A DNA stretch of 39,869 nt. Source: a virus. The translations under genes were made by a program, and so were the position numbers. The DNA lies in IMG/VR virus record IMGVR_UViG_3300042922_000195, positions 1-39,869 of that record; one strand, written 5' to 3'. This document shows, one piece after another, positions 15,397-35,707 of the stretch (the first letter of the stretch is position 1; every line of letters starts with the position of its first letter). The notes beneath the pieces were generated by a model. The model made no database searches, was not told where the DNA came from, and saw only the letters and a list, made by a program, of their open reading frames with translations.

Positions 15397-16416
15397 CTAA
15401 ATTGGTTGTGCTTGGAACACTTCATCAGCAGCTGCAAATGAAGGCAATGCAGTTGCAACAGCTTTCGTCCAAGTTCCGACTGGATCACGAGTTTCGTCAT
15501 ATACAGAAGCTAAGACGTTTCCGACTAAGCTGGTATCGACAGCTGGATCACGAGTCAACCGAGTTTCTTCTGCGGTTGGCCCATATAATGTTTCACCCAG
15601 CAAGTCGTCATTGAACATTGCAAATTTGTTTTCTGGGAAGTATTTCTTAGTAGTGTATGTTCCATCAGCTTCCTGTACTTTGTATTTTTCATCGTAAGTA
15701 CGGATCACGGGGTAACCATGAGTTTCCATAAATGCATCCAGATCAGCTTGAGAAACTACACGCCCAGAATCTTTGCCGAAGATTGCAGCAATGATTTTAG
15801 GATGGGTAGCAAGTGCACGATAGATTTTTCGAGAAGTCAATGCACGAGTTGGCTTAGTATCCAATGCATCAATCCAACGTTCAATATCAGCTAATGGATC
15901 AGAATTTTCATTCGTCCATACATTTGTACCAGTCAAAGCTTCTTTATGTTCAGCAGGCACATGGTAATCAAGCGTGAAGTTCAATCCGTTTTCTTTAACC
16001 GTTACTTGACCAGCAGCTAATACTTCCATCCGCATAGCTTCCACACGAGCGCGGACACCAGCTACTAATGAATCGATGTCGTTGTAAACTTGTCCTACTA
16101 GATACGCTTGTTCTGCTGGTGTACGTGGGTTTTCTAATGCAATAATGTCTGTTTCTTTCAATTGCATTTTGCGTTTGATCAAGCTTAGTTCTAATTCTTG
16201 CTTGTTAGCAATACGGCTACCGATTTCAGCCTCAGTATCGAAGTCGTGGATAGATGCTGCGATAGGGATACGGCTACCACCGCTTAATTGATCCAATTTC
16301 AAAGACGGTTGTTTGCGCTCTGGGAAGAGTGTTTCACCTAGTAAAGGTTTATATTCGCGATCACGAACATAGCTTAAAACTTCGTTTTGTGTAAATAATT
16401 CCATAATTGTTGGCAT
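15397..16416 (-). CDS. Major capsid protein, phage capsid E family
   Basis: A 339-residue major shell protein. The start MELFTQNEVLSYVRDR, the middle NGLNFTLDYHVPAEHKEAL, and the region with GYPVIRTYDEKY and KYFPENKFAMF belong to the lambda gpE-like Phage_cap_E family (HK97 fold). It follows the scaffold and decoration genes. It would form the icosahedral shell around the scaffold. ATG 16416 follows AGGAGG. No delta-domain is present, in line with the separate scaffold gene. Confidence 0.92.
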   Translation of the reverse strand: MPTIMELFTQNEVLSYVRDREYKPLLGETLFPERKQPSLKLDQLSGGSRIPIAASIHDFDTEAEIGSRIANKQELELSLIKRKMQLKETDIIALENPRTPAEQAYLVGQVYNDIDSLVAGVRARVEAMRMEVLAAGQVTVKENGLNFTLDYHVPAEHKEALTGTNVWTNENSDPLADIERWIDALDTKPTRALTSRKIYRALATHPKIIAAIFGKDSGRVVSQADLDAFMETHGYPVIRTYDEKYKVQEADGTYTTKKYFPENKFAMFNDDLLGETLYGPTAEETRLTRDPAVDTSLVGNVLASVYDETRDPVGTWTKAVATALPSFAAADEVFQAQPI

Positions 16417-16784: not shown

Positions 16785-17450
16785 TTATTTCCAAAAGTTG
16801 TCATTGTCTGCTTTTGCACGACTGTTTGCATTTTTGGCATATTGACTACCGATTGATTCTGCACCTGAACCATCACCGTTACCTGCTGGGTTATCAGCTG
16901 ATCCTGCAAGACGAATGTTGACTGCTTGTTCAACTGCTTCACGAAAGGCTTTAGATACATTGCCATAAGCTTCATCCAAATTCTTTTCATCACCGCCGAA
17001 CAGTGGTGCCAAAACAGTTGAGAGCGAATCAGGCAGTTTATCAGTAGCAAGGCGTTTGATTGTGCCCGCTTCGTCTTTATCCCGCTTCAGAGCCACACGA
17101 TCGGCTTCTAATTGATCACGTTCTTGTTGCAACTCGTATTGCGCTTTTTCTTCGGCAGACATTTGACCTTTTTTCTCAGCATCTTTGATTTTTTTGTCTG
17201 CTTCTTCTTGCCATTTAGCCTGTGCCGTTTCGATAGCTTTAGAAATACGTTTGTCAACAACAGAATCAAATTCAGATTGGCTAGTAAAAGAAATTGTTTT
17301 ACTTTCTCCATCGCCTTCACCGCTACCTTGACCACCATCTGTACCGTCATCTTCGCCACCATCAGCAAAGAATTGCAGATTCATCTTCATCAACCGATTG
17401 CCGCATTTTTGTCCTACAAATTGGTTCATTAACAATTTATTCTCTTTCAT
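16785..17450 (-). CDS. Capsid scaffolding protein (DUF4355-like)
   Basis: A 221-residue protein with the hallmark MKMNLQFFADGG near its start, an acidic Gly-rich segment, then a long charged coiled coil (about 60-130, KRISKAIETAQAKWQEEADKK onward), and a C-terminal NADNDNFWK-type end. This is the usual phage scaffold layout: it guides shell assembly and leaves before packaging. The open frame extends 38 codons upstream, but ATG 17450 has AAAGGAG six bases before it and is the likely start. Confidence 0.85.
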   Translation of the reverse strand: MKENKLLMNQFVGQKCGNRLMKMNLQFFADGGEDDGTDGGQGSGEGDGESKTISFTSQSEFDSVVDKRISKAIETAQAKWQEEADKKIKDAEKKGQMSAEEKAQYELQQERDQLEADRVALKRDKDEAGTIKRLATDKLPDSLSTVLAPLFGGDEKNLDEAYGNVSKAFREAVEQAVNIRLAGSADNPAGNGDGSGAESIGSQYAKNANSRAKADNDNFWK

Positions 17451-17534: not shown

Positions 17535-17624
17535 ACTTTGATATTCTATTTTGAACCCACACACGTTATTAGATTTTACTTAGCTTTTATTGCCATCAAA
17601 GTTTGGGCATAGAAGTGCTATCTC

Positions 17625-17957
17625 TTATAAATCATCAGCGTAGTCAGAAACTTCGTATGAAGTTTTGCACACGTTACATCTATAGGATTTTGTTGTAAAA
17701 ATAGCATCATGATTGTTACTATCCAAACCTTTCCAATCGTATGAACTTACATACACTACATGAATCAGTTTATTTGATTCATCATAGCATTTACCGCAAT
17801 AGAACTCTTTCATATCTCTGTGATATACGCCATTACGGTATACAAGACTGCTTTCATACTTTTTAACTTTACTTCTCAGTTTTTCATTCTCTGCTATCAA
17901 TGCTGCATTAGCAAAGTGTTTTTTAATAAAGTCTATAGCCGCCTTTATAACACCCAT
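17625..17957 (-). CDS. Zinc-ribbon protein with N-terminal helix
   Basis: A 110-residue protein. Residues 1-40 are helical with a coiled-coil part (AALIAENEKLRSKVKKYES), then a mainly beta domain has two CxxC knuckles, YCGKCY (about residues 54-57) and RCNVCK (about 94-97), which would bind one zinc. It lies between the Tad2-like gene and the scaffold, has GGAGGGG before ATG 17957, and is not a standard head gene. I do not know its function. It may be an accessory (moron-like) gene together with its Tad2-like neighbour. Confidence 0.7.
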   Translation of the reverse strand: MGVIKAAIDFIKKHFANAALIAENEKLRSKVKKYESSLVYRNGVYHRDMKEFYCGKCYDESNKLIHVVYVSSYDWKGLDSNNHDAIFTTKSYRCNVCKTSYEVSDYADDL

Positions 17958-18013
17958 TCAGACCCCTCCTATAGGAAGAGAATACCAAAATATCTTTCGT
18001 ATATCCATTTAAT

Positions 18014-18286
18014 TTATACTATTAAAATCCAATCTTCTGATAAAATATCGGATTGGCTTGCCACCCACATTTGATGAGAGCCATCCGCACATCGCATTTG
18101 GAGGTAAGGTTTTACATAAAACAAATCGCCTTCTTTTAATCCAAATGCTTCGGCTGTCTGTTTATTGCTCGGAATCCCATTTGGATATCCTTTCTGATAA
18201 ACAACAAACATATCTTTACCATTCCAACCTGTTCGACTAATCTTCTTTCCTTGTTTAGCTAATTGAATTGCTTTTCCAAAATCCAC
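18014..18286 (-). CDS. DUF2829 / Thoeris anti-defence 2 (Tad2)-like protein
   Basis: A 90-residue protein with the family pattern: MDFGKAIQLAKQGKKISRTGWNG, then MFVVYQKGYPNG, FVKPYLQMRCADGS and a final WVASQSDILSEDW. This is the DUF2829 family, members of which (Tad2) bind the cyclic ADP-ribose signals made by bacterial Thoeris systems and so block that defence. Family membership is seen in the sequence; anti-Thoeris activity here is inferred. The start is GTG 18286 with AGGAGG eight bases upstream. It sits inside the head operon and would be made late. Confidence 0.85.
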   Translation of the reverse strand: MDFGKAIQLAKQGKKISRTGWNGKDMFVVYQKGYPNGIPSNKQTAEAFGLKEGDLFYVKPYLQMRCADGSHQMWVASQSDILSEDWILIV

Positions 18287-18298
18287 AACAAATTCCTC

Positions 18299-19585
18299 CT
18301 ATTTTGCTTGCTGATTAGCTCTTTTTATCTTGTTGAAGCCGTTTCTATTTCCGTATTTCAAATCTTGATAATCATTCAGGCTTATCGGCAAATCTTTCTT
18401 ACTCAGTACACCTTTTAAAGACCTGTATTCAGCATTGTCACGCTTGGCATTGACTACTTTTCTCTTCTGTATAGCAATTTCATCATCCGAATACTTTTCT
18501 TTAAGTTTATCCATCCACTCGTTATAAGTGGTTTCACCATTGATTGGGATAACTTCACCACTGATAGGATCTAAAGCATTCCTAGGCAGCTTAAGAGTGC
18601 GTTTGCTGTACATTATTGCTATTGTTCTACACCATGGATGAAACGGAGGATACGTACCACTAGCACCGTTTACCTTAGCTTCAGAAACTCGATAAATTTT
18701 GTGATCTTTATCTTTGCAGATCTCGGACGTTCGCAAGTCCAGCACTGCAACAAGCATGTACTCTTTTACGCCGTTATCTTGCCACGCTTTGAGTTTCGCT
18801 TGATTAGCCATGTAATTAGCTTCTGTTCGAATCAAACGCCTAGCAACACCAATAGAGCGGTCAAACTCCTTAGCTATTGCCTTAGCCATTTCAAACTCAG
18901 ACATGCCAGTCATAGATTCAACGGTGAACAACTCTTCCAGCCTAGCTGCCAAAGCTTCAGTATCTCCCCATATCCGGTTAGAATAATTCGATCCATTCCA
19001 GTGGCTATCGAGGATGTTCTTTGTATACCTAGTCGATAATTCCTTAAACTGATAATCCTTCTTATTCCATACTTCAATGACGACGCCATTTTTGGCATTC
19101 TCTTGGGCTTTACGAATAACTGATTCAGCAGTTGCTTCACGATACGATTCGTGAATAGCATCTACATAGAACTCTGTCTGCTTTTCTAACTGAACATCTG
19201 CAACTTGCTTAGAAACTAAAAAAGACTTGGCTTTCAAGTCCTCTGCACGAGTGATACGCTCTTTAAATGCTAATGCTTGCAATCTGTTTTTTGCTGCAGC
19301 TTGTAATTCAGGATCTTTAATCTGATTAGAAAGCTTTCTCAATTCTGCTAATTCTTCAACAGATGTCGTTTGATTCAGCATCCGTTTAGCTTCGTCCTCA
19401 GATATTCCAGATCGTTGTTGAGAGCGAGCAAATAACTTCCTAACCTTTTGTGTTAAGTACGTCTGTGCTTGTCTATACGCTTTCGCCACAGCTTCCTCAA
19501 CTTTGATTGCGCCATCGTTTATCTTTTGCTCGGCATCAACATTGCGGCGTTCCCAGTAGGATAGCTTGCGTTTCTTTTGAGCCAT
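18299..19585 (-). CDS. Minor head protein (Mu gpF/SPP1 gp7-like head morphogenesis protein)
   Basis: A 428-residue protein. The N-terminal 240 residues are helical. Residues about 260-340 match the Phage_Mu_F domain: LDLRTSEICKDKDHKIYRV followed by GTYPPFHPWCRTIAIMYSK, with the conserved R-T-S-x-x-C and PPxHPxCR motifs. Proteins of this type bind the portal and enter the procapsid in small numbers. It follows the portal, with two small genes between. ATG 19585 has AAGGAG upstream. Confidence 0.9.
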   Translation of the reverse strand: MAQKKRKLSYWERRNVDAEQKINDGAIKVEEAVAKAYRQAQTYLTQKVRKLFARSQQRSGISEDEAKRMLNQTTSVEELAELRKLSNQIKDPELQAAAKNRLQALAFKERITRAEDLKAKSFLVSKQVADVQLEKQTEFYVDAIHESYREATAESVIRKAQENAKNGVVIEVWNKKDYQFKELSTRYTKNILDSHWNGSNYSNRIWGDTEALAARLEELFTVESMTGMSEFEMAKAIAKEFDRSIGVARRLIRTEANYMANQAKLKAWQDNGVKEYMLVAVLDLRTSEICKDKDHKIYRVSEAKVNGASGTYPPFHPWCRTIAIMYSKRTLKLPRNALDPISGEVIPINGETTYNEWMDKLKEKYSDDEIAIQKRKVVNAKRDNAEYRSLKGVLSKKDLPISLNDYQDLKYGNRNGFNKIKRANQQAK

Positions 19586-32628: not shown

Positions 32629-34914
32629 CTAACCTCTCCATTCGTCAAAGTCTACTGAGAAATCCATAAACTTCTTGTCAAAGATAAATGGCGCAACTCC
32701 TGTCATGCCTTCTCTGTTTTTGGCTACATCACATCGAATCTTGCGACTGTCTTTATCGTCAGCTGAAAGTAAGAGTGTGACATTCGCATCTTGTTCTAAT
32801 GATCCAGACTCTTTCAAATCACTGAGCATTGGACGCTTGTCTTGTCGCTGCTCGACTGCCCTGCTTAACTGAGCTAGCAACACAATGGTGATTCCGTAGT
32901 CTGTTGTGAGCTTCTTCAACTCTCGTGTGACTTCGTTCATCACTTGACGCTCATTTTTCCGAGTATCGTTAACTGTGATCAACCCTGCATAGTCTACAAA
33001 CACGACATACTTCTTATCACTCAAACGCTGTTTAATTGCGTATTTAATATCGTTCAAGTTTGAGTACTCGGATGTATAGACACGTAGATCGAATGTATTT
33101 TTCATTTCCTCATAAGCTTTGCGTGCTTTGACTTTATTTTCCTGTGAAAGCTTGTCCTTCCCCACAAATAGAAGTGAGTTGATATGTGTCTCTTTTGAAA
33201 CCAGTCGAGTCATTAGCTCGTTTTGCCCCATTTCAAAAGTGAAAAAGTCGCACTGAACATTTTCGTTATCTGTAAACAATTTGTGCATGATATTTAAAGC
33301 AAACGCCGTATTGTGAGTAACTATAAAATCGTTGCAAAGATACAACTGATCTTTGTTTTCGACTGAGATACAAGTTACTTCTTCATACCCAACTTCTTTA
33401 ATTCCAGAAATTATCGATCTATTAAATTTCTTTCTAAATTTATGGTCACATTCCAAAAGAACTTTTTTCTTAGTTGGCGTTTTGAATAATTCAGACAACA
33501 TGCTAACTTCTGCCAGAACGGATATCTCATAACAAATATTTTTTCCTCTTTCATCTTTTCTAATCTTATTTTCATATCCAACACTAAATAGCAGTTCTCT
33601 TACTTGATAAGCCATTTTTCTAGAAGTAGTGTTATATTTTACATATGGACTATTCTTACTTATATACGCTGATCCATCTGTATCAAATAATCCTCGTAAT
33701 AGCTCGAGTCTTTCGCTTATACTTGATGTCATTAAATATTCAGGTATCTCTTTCAAATGAGAATATCTGATAACTTCTGGGATATCAGAAAAAACATCTT
33801 TTGTTTGTAAATACTTTTTATTCTTTTTGTATTCTTTCAACTCGAACACCCAACTATAATTTTTTAAACTTAATTTTTTTGGTTTTGTATTTGTTATTTC
33901 AGCTACTTTTTTAAATACAAATTCGTCACATCCGCTGATTGTTAGAGGTCTTTCTGACGAGCAGCCATCTCCCAAAAACACACCAATCAAATAAGGATCA
34001 ACAAACGACTTATTTTGAGGTTTGTATTCGACAGGACCATTTAAAGGTATTGAGTACCTAGCATGCTTTTTACCATTCACATCTACTCTATGCGTTCCAG
34101 TATCAAAAATTTCTTTTGTTGTTATTTCTTTTAAATTCCCTTTTGATGTATAAACACTCCAGATGTGATCTTCATCAACAATTGTCTTTCTTCCATCTTT
34201 TAAAGTGACTTCAAAAGTTTTCAAAGTACCTCTTGGATACACGCCAACTACCCTAGTAGGTTTTCCGTGTTGATCAAAAACATAGTCATTTGGTTTTAAA
34301 TCGCCAAATTTTACTTTACCTTTTGGTGTTGGTATTTCTAACCAATTCGGATGCCCTTTCCCTGTAGCTGGTCTTCCTGCTAAGACAATCAACTTGCCAC
34401 CAGTTAGCCCACCACCAAGAAATGCATCTAGCGGTTTGTATGTCGTTAGAACATCGCTTGGCTTATCCAAGTTCTCCGAGAATTCAGAGAAAGCTTTATC
34501 CAACTTGCCATCAGACTTAATATGGTTCACGTCACACTTTTCTTCTAGCAAGCGTGTTAACTTATCGCCATCTGTTTTAGAAAGCGTCTCAGCGTATTTT
34601 ATGGACGCTGAGTGTAACTTGCGATCAAGATAATCATTGTGTATGATCCGTGCTAGCTCTCTTTCGATTCCAAGCTGATTAGCAGAATTCTTCAAGATGT
34701 CTAATTCATCTACTGTCCCCGCTTTGAAGTAATCAATGGTTCGCATTTCGCGATGAACCTGTTCGGTGTTGTATTTCATTCCTCGCAGTCTCGTCATTGA
34801 CTCTACAATCAATTTGCACTGAGGACTTTCAAACCATTCCGAATCAATATCAATGTTGGTAATGATTGATGGATTGTTTAGCATTTCAGCCACAAGTTTC
34901 AACTCATTGTTCAT
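32629..34914 (-). CDS. dnaB: Replicative DnaB-type helicase interrupted by an intein
   Basis: A 761-residue precursor. Excluding the intein (residues 187-535) it is a 412-residue DnaB-family helicase: N-terminal helical domain, Walker A GRPATGK joined to TAFALN, then FFTFEMGQNELM, a Walker B region (VVFVDYAGLI), QLSRAVEQRQDKRPMLSDL and a final KNREG region. After splicing the Walker A reads normally. The helicase would unwind DNA at the fork with the replisome organizer encoded just upstream. ATG 34914 is chosen; AAAGGAGG lies 13 bases before it, a long spacing. It overlaps the upstream gene by 11 bases. Confidence 0.92.
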   Translation of the reverse strand: MNNELKLVAEMLNNPSIITNIDIDSEWFESPQCKLIVESMTRLRGMKYNTEQVHREMRTIDYFKAGTVDELDILKNSANQLGIERELARIIHNDYLDRKLHSASIKYAETLSKTDGDKLTRLLEEKCDVNHIKSDGKLDKAFSEFSENLDKPSDVLTTYKPLDAFLGGGLTGGKLIVLAGRPATGKGHPNWLEIPTPKGKVKFGDLKPNDYVFDQHGKPTRVVGVYPRGTLKTFEVTLKDGRKTIVDEDHIWSVYTSKGNLKEITTKEIFDTGTHRVDVNGKKHARYSIPLNGPVEYKPQNKSFVDPYLIGVFLGDGCSSERPLTISGCDEFVFKKVAEITNTKPKKLSLKNYSWVFELKEYKKNKKYLQTKDVFSDIPEVIRYSHLKEIPEYLMTSSISERLELLRGLFDTDGSAYISKNSPYVKYNTTSRKMAYQVRELLFSVGYENKIRKDERGKNICYEISVLAEVSMLSELFKTPTKKKVLLECDHKFRKKFNRSIISGIKEVGYEEVTCISVENKDQLYLCNDFIVTHNTAFALNIMHKLFTDNENVQCDFFTFEMGQNELMTRLVSKETHINSLLFVGKDKLSQENKVKARKAYEEMKNTFDLRVYTSEYSNLNDIKYAIKQRLSDKKYVVFVDYAGLITVNDTRKNERQVMNEVTRELKKLTTDYGITIVLLAQLSRAVEQRQDKRPMLSDLKESGSLEQDANVTLLLSADDKDSRKIRCDVAKNREGMTGVAPFIFDKKFMDFSVDFDEWRG
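33310..34356 (-). mobile_element. Class 3-like intein with LAGLIDADG homing endonuclease in DnaB
   Basis: A 349-residue in-frame insert between K and T of the Walker A motif. The first residue is Gly, not Cys or Ser, and the end is VTHN followed by Thr. Three residues fit the class 3 W-C-T set: Trp in DEDHIW (block B), Cys in EVTCISV (block F) and Thr in VTHN (block G). Homing endonuclease motifs are LIGVFLGDG and LLRGLFDTDG. The DNA is visibly more AT-rich than flanking dnaB, as expected for a horizontally acquired element. Exact splice borders are inferred from the helicase family. Confidence 0.92.
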
Positions 34915-35707
34915 AGGCTTCAGACAACCTCCTTTGAGATTCAGCAATTTCATCAGAGATTGAAGAATTAACTTGTGGGCGATACTCATTCAAGTAATCA
35001 TCAAACTTATTTCCAAAGAGTGTTGCTGGTCTTAGGTACTTATTCATTTCTTGGTTGTTCAACCATTGGTTTGTTTTCACATCAATTACTTTTTTGAAAT
35101 CATCTAATCGTTGGCCTTCGTTCCATCTTGCTTTGATTAGGTCTTTCCATTTCTGAGTAACTTTGAATGATTTACTTGTTGCTTCGTTCAAGTATTTGAT
35201 GATGTCACTATATGGTATTTTCTCTTTATCTATATCTCTTTCTTTATCTAATTCTTTATCTATATCTGCACCGTCACGTGACGTCACGCTAACGTCACGC
35301 TCTAATAGAAGCTTTTCTTGTTTCTTCCGTTCACGATATTCCCTGTTTCTTATGGCGTTTTTCAGCCTTACTTGTTCCATGCCTTCAACGTTTTGATGCT
35401 TTTCCCAATTACTAATTGCTATTAAGCCATCGTTGCTTAGATCGATCATGTTGAAACTAGCTAAGGTCGTCAGTGCTAATCTAACTGTGTTGACGTTTTT
35501 ACCAAAAAGGGTTGCTAGCATTTCTTCTGAATAGGGCATATTTCTTTGTATATAGATCAAGCCATCATCATTAGTCTTCCCTGCTAATACGAGAAGTCTT
35601 ATCCAAATGACTAAGATTGCATCTGACTCAGGAACAGCTTGAATTAACCTTATTTTTTCATCATCAAACATTGTCGTCTTAAGCTTAATCCAACTTATTT
35701 CTGCCAC
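34904..35707 (-). CDS. Phage replisome organizer (replication initiation protein)
   Basis: A 267-residue protein. Residues about 1-125 match the phage replisome organizer N-terminal domain: MAEISWIKLKTTMFDDEKIR and a winged helix ending in AISNWEKHQN. The middle is charged (RNREYRERKKQEKLL, DIDKELDKERDIDKEK), and the C-terminal part (about 175-245) resembles the conserved C-terminal domain of these proteins (KVTQKWKDLIKARWNEG, YLRPATLFGNKFDDYL). It would bind repeats in its own gene and load the DnaB helicase. GTG 35707 has GAGGAGGGA upstream. Confidence 0.88.
   Translation of the reverse strand: MAEISWIKLKTTMFDDEKIRLIQAVPESDAILVIWIRLLVLAGKTNDDGLIYIQRNMPYSEEMLATLFGKNVNTVRLALTTLASFNMIDLSNDGLIAISNWEKHQNVEGMEQVRLKNAIRNREYRERKKQEKLLLERDVSVTSRDGADIDKELDKERDIDKEKIPYSDIIKYLNEATSKSFKVTQKWKDLIKARWNEGQRLDDFKKVIDVKTNQWLNNQEMNKYLRPATLFGNKFDDYLNEYRPQVNSSISDEIAESQRRLSEAYEQ
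35224..35301. other. Candidate replication origin: two repeat sets inside the replisome organizer gene
   Basis: Three copies of CTTTATCTA (35224, 35242, 35254; the outer two extend to CTTTATCTATATCT) are followed by three copies of CGTCACG (35272, 35282, 35293), the first forming the palindrome CGTCACGTGACG. Origins within the replisome organizer gene are known in lactococcal phages and SPP1. Binding is inferred. Confidence 0.65.

What the first reader, a model, noticed from the sequence alone, without database searches (positions are those of the whole stretch)
18014..18286. Tad2/DUF2829 homologue hidden in the head operon
The 90-residue protein follows the DUF2829 pattern, the family that contains Thoeris anti-defence 2, which sequesters cyclic ADP-ribose signals. 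It sits between the minor head protein and the scaffold, beside a zinc-ribbon protein of unknown role. Late expression seems odd for an anti-defence gene, unless it protects late infection or is packed with the head. The neighbouring 17625-17957 gene could be a second accessory factor.
Basis: partly seen in the sequence, partly recalled or inferred. Interest (0 to 1): 0.7.

Follow-up and report, generated by a model that had tools for sequence, protein, structure and literature searches.

The report
Tad2-family immune sponge in head operon
A probable Enterococcus phage carries, as a removable extra gene inside its capsid-building operon, a clear member of the known Tad2 protein family that soaks up bacterial alarm signals; the gene itself is ordinary for its family, but its place beside the capsid genes fits the recent discovery that the matching bacterial defence is set off by capsid proteins.

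Summary
Window 18014-18286 (-) is an intact 90-aa gene (GTG start, AGGAGG ribosome site) that matches Pfam PF11195 'Tad2-like' (ex-DUF2829) at E 5.7e-25. Its AlphaFold model (pLDDT 96.5) matches every solved Tad2 structure (Z 11.6-12.6; best unrelated fold 5.7), and every residue invariant across 58 homologues (R18, W21, W74, S77, D80, D85) is kept. It lies between the minor head gene and the scaffold gene, beside a zinc-ribbon ORFan. That place is a cargo slot: none of 41 close relatives has Tad2 there, and four show an empty site with 96-98% identical downstream DNA. So it is cargo, not a capsid part. Late expression is not odd: about half of this subfamily lies near packaging or head genes, and published work shows that Thoeris is triggered by the major head protein. 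Enterococcus faecium plasmids carry a TIR-SIR2-TIR operon of that kind. Best reading: a Tad2 sponge for ADPR-type signals (gcADPR likeliest), made together with the trigger; the ligand is unproven. Its subfamily has an invariant insert where HgmTad2 has a second pocket, so another ligand is possible. New member of a known kind.

The parts
18014..18286 (-). Tad2-like (PF11195, ex-DUF2829) protein, 90 aa, GTG start; predicted sponge for ADPR-derived immune signals
17625..17957 (-). 110-aa ORFan with two CxxC motifs (zinc-ribbon-like), strong AGGAGG site; second gene of the same cargo segment; function unknown
17576..18298 (-). 723-bp cargo segment holding both genes; replaced by 40 bp in relatives L112, L114, L118 and by a similarly short spacer in L116, with downstream flanking DNA 96-98% identical
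18299..19585 (-). minor head protein (Phage_Mu_F), upstream border of the slot
16785..17450 (-). head scaffolding protein (DUF4355), probable start ATG 17450, downstream border of the slot
15397..16416 (-). major capsid protein (Phage_cap_E); a major head protein is what triggers Sau-Thoeris
   Evidence: PMC12578639

Best explanation
The gene encodes a Tad2-family sponge. Predicted mechanism: four copies assemble, and inter-protomer pockets made of the loop after strand 1 (GWNGK), the W74 strand and the following loop and helix (SxxD..L..D) bind an ADP-ribose-derived signal made by a TIR-domain sensor (1''-3' gcADPR of type I Thoeris is likeliest; His-ADPR of type II is possible). The ThsA effector then stays off and NAD+ is spared. 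Being encoded in line with portal, scaffold and capsid genes, the sponge would be made from the same transcript as the protein that trips the sensor. Shown here: family, fold, retained invariant residues, cargo nature, head-operon position, and existence of a matching Thoeris-type operon in the presumed host genus. Inferred: tetramer, ligand, anti-Thoeris activity, co-transcription and timing.
For: PF11195 at E 5.7e-25. PDB sequence relatives are ModTad2 (E 2.3e-16), HgmTad2/AcrIIA7, SptTad2 and SPO1 Tad2. The model at pLDDT 96.5 matches ModTad2-HisADPR (Foldseek E 1.2e-7), SPO1 Tad2-gcADPR (E 2.2e-7) and SptTad2-cGG. R18, W21, W74, S77, D80, D85 are invariant and G20, N22, G23, K24, M26, F27, L82, W86 nearly so in 58 homologues, all kept here; W21-K24, W74, S77 and D80 fall in the elements that a review lists as the gcADPR pocket (PMC12043709). 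Capsid trigger of Thoeris: PMC12578639; portal trigger of the TIR NADase SpbK: PMC12847820. TIR-SIR2-TIR operon on E. faecium plasmid AP027235; SIR2-STALD ThsA homologues on 28 Enterococcus plasmids.
Against: No binding or infection data. Relatives of this fold bind different signals (gcADPR, His-ADPR, cyclic dinucleotides), and one carries the anti-CRISPR name AcrIIA7. The nearest ligand-known relative by sequence is ModTad2 (His-ADPR), but macro-type ThsA was not seen among the listed genera of Enterococcus plasmids. The actual host and its defences are unknown. Published pocket residues could not be checked atom by atom.
Confidence: 0.72

Rival explanations
1. Its main target is a cyclic dinucleotide (CBASS-type) or another non-ADPR signal, bound in the subfamily's conserved insert, with Thoeris a side target or no target.
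For: HgmTad2/SptTad2 bind cGG through an insertion between strands 2 and 5, separate from the gcADPR site (PMC12043709; 8wjd and 8kbk titles). In this subfamily Q31, G33, Y34, P35, G37, I38, N41, A45, G53, P60, Y61 are invariant in 28 sequences, but most are not conserved elsewhere.
Against: The ADPR-site motifs are kept just as strictly. The invariant insert could be structural (hairpin 34-39, helix 42-48). SPO1 Tad2 does not bind 3'3'-cGAMP (PMC11722364).
Confidence: 0.13
2. It is an anti-CRISPR (AcrIIA7-like Cas9 inhibitor).
For: AcrIIA7 carries the same Pfam domain (PMC6739104); solved structures named AcrIIA7 match by sequence and fold.
Against: Structures titled AcrIIA7 (8kbi, 8kbk) share their sequence with HgmTad2 (8kbj), which is solved with cADPR and cGG bound. 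PMC6739104 found AcrIIA7 homologues in genomes with various CRISPR subtypes, and only one in a genome with II-A self-targeting spacers.
Confidence: 0.07
3. It is a virion or head-assembly protein that shares the fold.
For: It lies inside the head operon; a weak fold match to a neck chain of phage 812 (8qkh_s, Z 5.7).
Against: None of 41 relatives with the same minor head protein has it in the slot, and four have an empty site with 96-98% identical downstream flank. Homologues also lie in a tRNA cluster, beside an endolysin and beside replication genes. Z 5.7 is below the tool's own noise level.
Confidence: 0.04

Closest known systems
ModTad2 (Myroides odoratus prophage, PDB 8v3e/9eib)
   Same: Closest solved relative by sequence (62.7 bits) and top Foldseek hit; shares GWNGK, PYL and the SxSDIL.EDW end
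   Different: Lacks about five residues of the GYPxGI insert; solved with His-ADPR (9eib); long branch outside the subfamily in the tree
SPO1 Tad2 (gp34.65, PDB 8sme-8smg, 8wje)
   Same: Founding member; same fold, Z 11.7-12.3, same invariant residues
   Different: About a third identical; different insert
HgmTad2/AcrIIA7 and SptTad2 (8kbi-8kbm, 8wjd)
   Same: Same fold and ADPR-site motifs
   Different: Longer insertion that holds a cyclic-dinucleotide pocket; the insert here is shorter and different in sequence
SpaA1 P7 (Beceayunavirus, NC_018277)
   Same: 71% identical; same place, between minor head and scaffold genes
   Different: No zinc-ribbon gene beside it; related contigs carry another minor head family (phrog_581); function untested

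Membership tests
Tad2-like (Pfam PF11195) | profile match above the curated cut-off | tested here: met
   88.1 bits vs cut-off 25
Tad2-like (Pfam PF11195) | Tad2 fold | tested here: met
   Foldseek E 1.2e-7 to 2.5e-6 and Z 11.6-12.6 to solved Tad2s, next fold Z 5.7
Tad2 anti-Thoeris sponge | conserved residues in the pocket-forming loops kept | tested here: met
   W21, N22, G23, K24, W74, S77, D80 kept; pocket elements taken from PMC12043709, not from coordinates
Tad2 anti-Thoeris sponge | homotetramer with two inter-protomer pockets | not testable with these tools
   only single-chain prediction available
Tad2 anti-Thoeris sponge | binds gcADPR or His-ADPR | not testable with these tools
   needs a binding assay
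Tad2 anti-Thoeris sponge | rescues phage from Thoeris | not testable with these tools
   needs a plaque assay
Tad2 with second cyclic-dinucleotide pocket (HgmTad2 type) | long insertion between strands 2 and 5 | tested here: inconclusive
   an insert with its own hairpin and helix and invariant residues is present, but it is shorter than in HgmTad2 (alignment)
AcrIIA7 anti-CRISPR | inhibits Cas9 | not testable with these tools
   homology only

The most novel reading that the evidence does not exclude
This gene belongs to a distinct Tad2 subfamily whose invariant insert (Q31-x-G-Y-P-x-G-I-x-x-N41) forms a second or altered pocket for a signal not yet assigned to Tad2, and which phages repeatedly place in the head module so that the sponge is made together with the capsid or portal protein that triggers TIR defence.
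Probability: 0.2. Interest if true: 0.6.

Novelty: new member of a known kind. Interest (0 to 1): 0.42.

Why it matters
It gives a concrete, testable case that a phage counter-defence gene need not be early: if the defence is tripped by capsid protein, a sponge in the capsid operon arrives with the trigger. It also points to a head-operon cargo slot in Enterococcus-type siphophages where further counter-defence genes could be sought, and to a Tad2 subfamily whose ligand is unknown.

Tried and rejected
Structural protein role: rejected because the slot is empty or filled with other cargo in close relatives; the fold match to phage 812 neck chain 8qkh_s (Z 5.7) is under the tool's noise level, and no sequence link to it appeared. 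Head placement as a trait of this subfamily alone: not claimed; 16 of 33 non-redundant subfamily members lie near head or packaging genes, but in more distant members portal and terminase also lead the neighbour tally (up to 18 family matches among 89 neighbours of 49 loci), and I had no proper null model. Zinc-ribbon neighbour: no Pfam, PHROG, NCBIfam, phage or viral-contig relative found. Thoeris census in Bacilli: ThsA_Macro in 5 and STALD in 2 of 198 genomes above the cut-off, a sample of unnamed, mostly small genomes, so weak evidence. Alignments A1 and A2 lack residue 1 of the window protein (my slip); numbering is taken from A3. Other slot cargo: only DUF6275 was recognised by Pfam. Primary papers on Tad2 pocket residues were not in the library.

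Full report
Observation. The gene is real: 90 codons, GTG start preceded by AGGAGG, beginning 12 bp after the minor head stop. PF11195 'Tad2-like' matches at E 5.7e-25. The window is a virus record of 39,869 bases. It shares DNA stretches of 80-98% identity mainly with Enterococcus phages, including the minor head gene of phiFL3A (82%) and part of an E. gallinarum phage (92%), so the host is probably an Enterococcus (inferred).

Fold and residues. Sequence search of the PDB returns, as significant hits, only the known Tad2/AcrIIA7 set: ModTad2, HgmTad2 (also deposited as AcrIIA7), SptTad2 and SPO1 Tad2. The AlphaFold2 model has mean pLDDT 96.5 and matches those structures at Z 11.6-12.6, against 5.7 for the next fold. 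Over 58 homologues the invariant positions are R18, W21, W74, S77, D80 and D85, and the nearly invariant ones include G20, N22, G23, K24, M26, F27, L82 and W86. All are kept here. According to a review, the gcADPR pocket of Tad2 is built from the strand 1-2 loop, the strand 3-4 loop, strand 4, the loop after strand 4 and helix 3 (PMC12043709). In the model W21-K24 lie in the first loop, W74 at the end of a strand, S77 in the following loop and D80 in helix 78-82. This is agreement by element, not by coordinates.

Subfamily. The gene belongs to a clade of 30 sequences with support 99/96. With its next neighbours it shares an insert between strands 2 and 5 in which Q31, G33, Y34, P35, G37, I38, N41, A45, G53, P60 and Y61 are invariant over 28 sequences, while most of these positions differ in 30 distant ones. 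In HgmTad2 the corresponding insertion holds a second pocket for cyclic dinucleotides (PMC12043709). Whether the insert binds anything here is unknown; structural constraint is the simple alternative. ModTad2, the closest solved relative by score, binds His-ADPR (PDB 9eib; PMC13299392) and SPO1 Tad2 binds gcADPR, so the ligand cannot be read off from homology.

Place in the genome. The order is TerL, portal, two small genes, minor head, tad2, zinc-ribbon ORF, scaffold, a small head gene, major capsid, all on the minus strand. Forty-one viral contigs carry a minor head protein 60-95% identical to this one. None has a Tad2 or the zinc-ribbon gene in the slot. In L112, L114 and L118 the minor head stop is followed by only 40 bp before DNA that is 96% identical to window 17575-17200, and L116 shows the same state with a 98% identical flank. 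The window has 723 bp there. In the 39 of these loci where the scaffold could be placed, and in six annotated phages, the gap varies from 55 to 1,212 bp and holds unrelated small ORFs in some, among them DUF6275 and a 224-aa ORF. The slot is therefore a cargo site inside the head operon, and tad2 is cargo.

Is the head-operon place unusual? No. SpaA1 (71% identical protein) and contigs L002, L004, L007, L008 and L009-L011 have it in the same minor head-scaffold slot. L005/L006, L019/L020 and L026 have it after the portal gene. L013, L029, L031, L032 and L003 have it near terminase. That makes 16 of 33 non-redundant subfamily members. Others lie among tRNAs (Listeria phage A511), replication genes, a transposase or an endolysin. 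I do not claim statistical enrichment. The tree leaves open whether the window and the SpaA1 group reached the slot separately.

Why late expression makes sense. Staphylococcal Thoeris is activated when ThsB1 binds the phage major head protein and recruits ThsB2 (PMC12578639), and the TIR NADase SpbK is activated by an SPP1-type portal protein (PMC12847820). A sponge encoded between portal and capsid genes would be made with the trigger. Enterococcus does meet such systems: 28 Enterococcus plasmids carry a homologue of SIR2-STALD ThsA, and one of them (AP027235) has the complete TIR-SIR2-TIR order, the two-sensor layout of the staphylococcal system. The macro-domain ThsA of type II did not show Enterococcus among the listed plasmid genera, which slightly favours gcADPR over His-ADPR as target. 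This step is inference.

Verdict. A confirmed Tad2-family gene, carried as cargo in a variable slot of the head operon of a probable Enterococcus siphophage. Counter-defence by signal sequestration is the best explanation (0.72). A different or second ligand is the main rival. The gene is a new member of a known kind; the parts worth following are the cargo slot, the trigger-linked timing and the subfamily-specific insert.

Noticed in passing
window 32629-34989 (-): DnaB-type replicative helicase interrupted in frame by an intein-like insert with a LAGLIDADG endonuclease domain (DnaB_C E 4.9e-49, LAGLIDADG_3 E 7.9e-14); LAGRPATGKG and VHNTAFALN flank it.
   Followed up: partly
window 17576-18298; L112-L152 between minor head and scaffold genes: The minor head-scaffold gap is a variable cargo slot (55-1,212 bp) holding different small genes in different relatives; a possible place to look for further counter-defence genes.
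   Followed up: partly
window 18299-19585 (-), C-terminus; L112-L119 vs L120-L130: The minor head protein has a C-terminal extension of about 48 residues that many close relatives lack (matches end at residue 379-381), right at the border of the cargo slot.
   Followed up: no
L105 (Acinetobacter baumannii plasmid NZ_CP039344), 4749-5279: A 65% identical domain of this mostly Bacillota Tad2 subfamily sits on A. baumannii phage-plasmid-like elements with a terminase gene 2.5 kb away, implying transfer across phyla.
   Followed up: no
window model vs PDB 8qkh chain s: The only non-Tad2 fold match above Z 5 is a chain of the neck of Staphylococcus phage 812, perhaps its stopper decoration protein; probably chance, but curious for a gene in a head operon.
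   Followed up: partly
L153 (E. faecium plasmid AP027235), 2796-6018: Complete TIR-SIR2-TIR operon (two-sensor type I Thoeris layout) on a conjugative E. faecium plasmid.
   Followed up: partly
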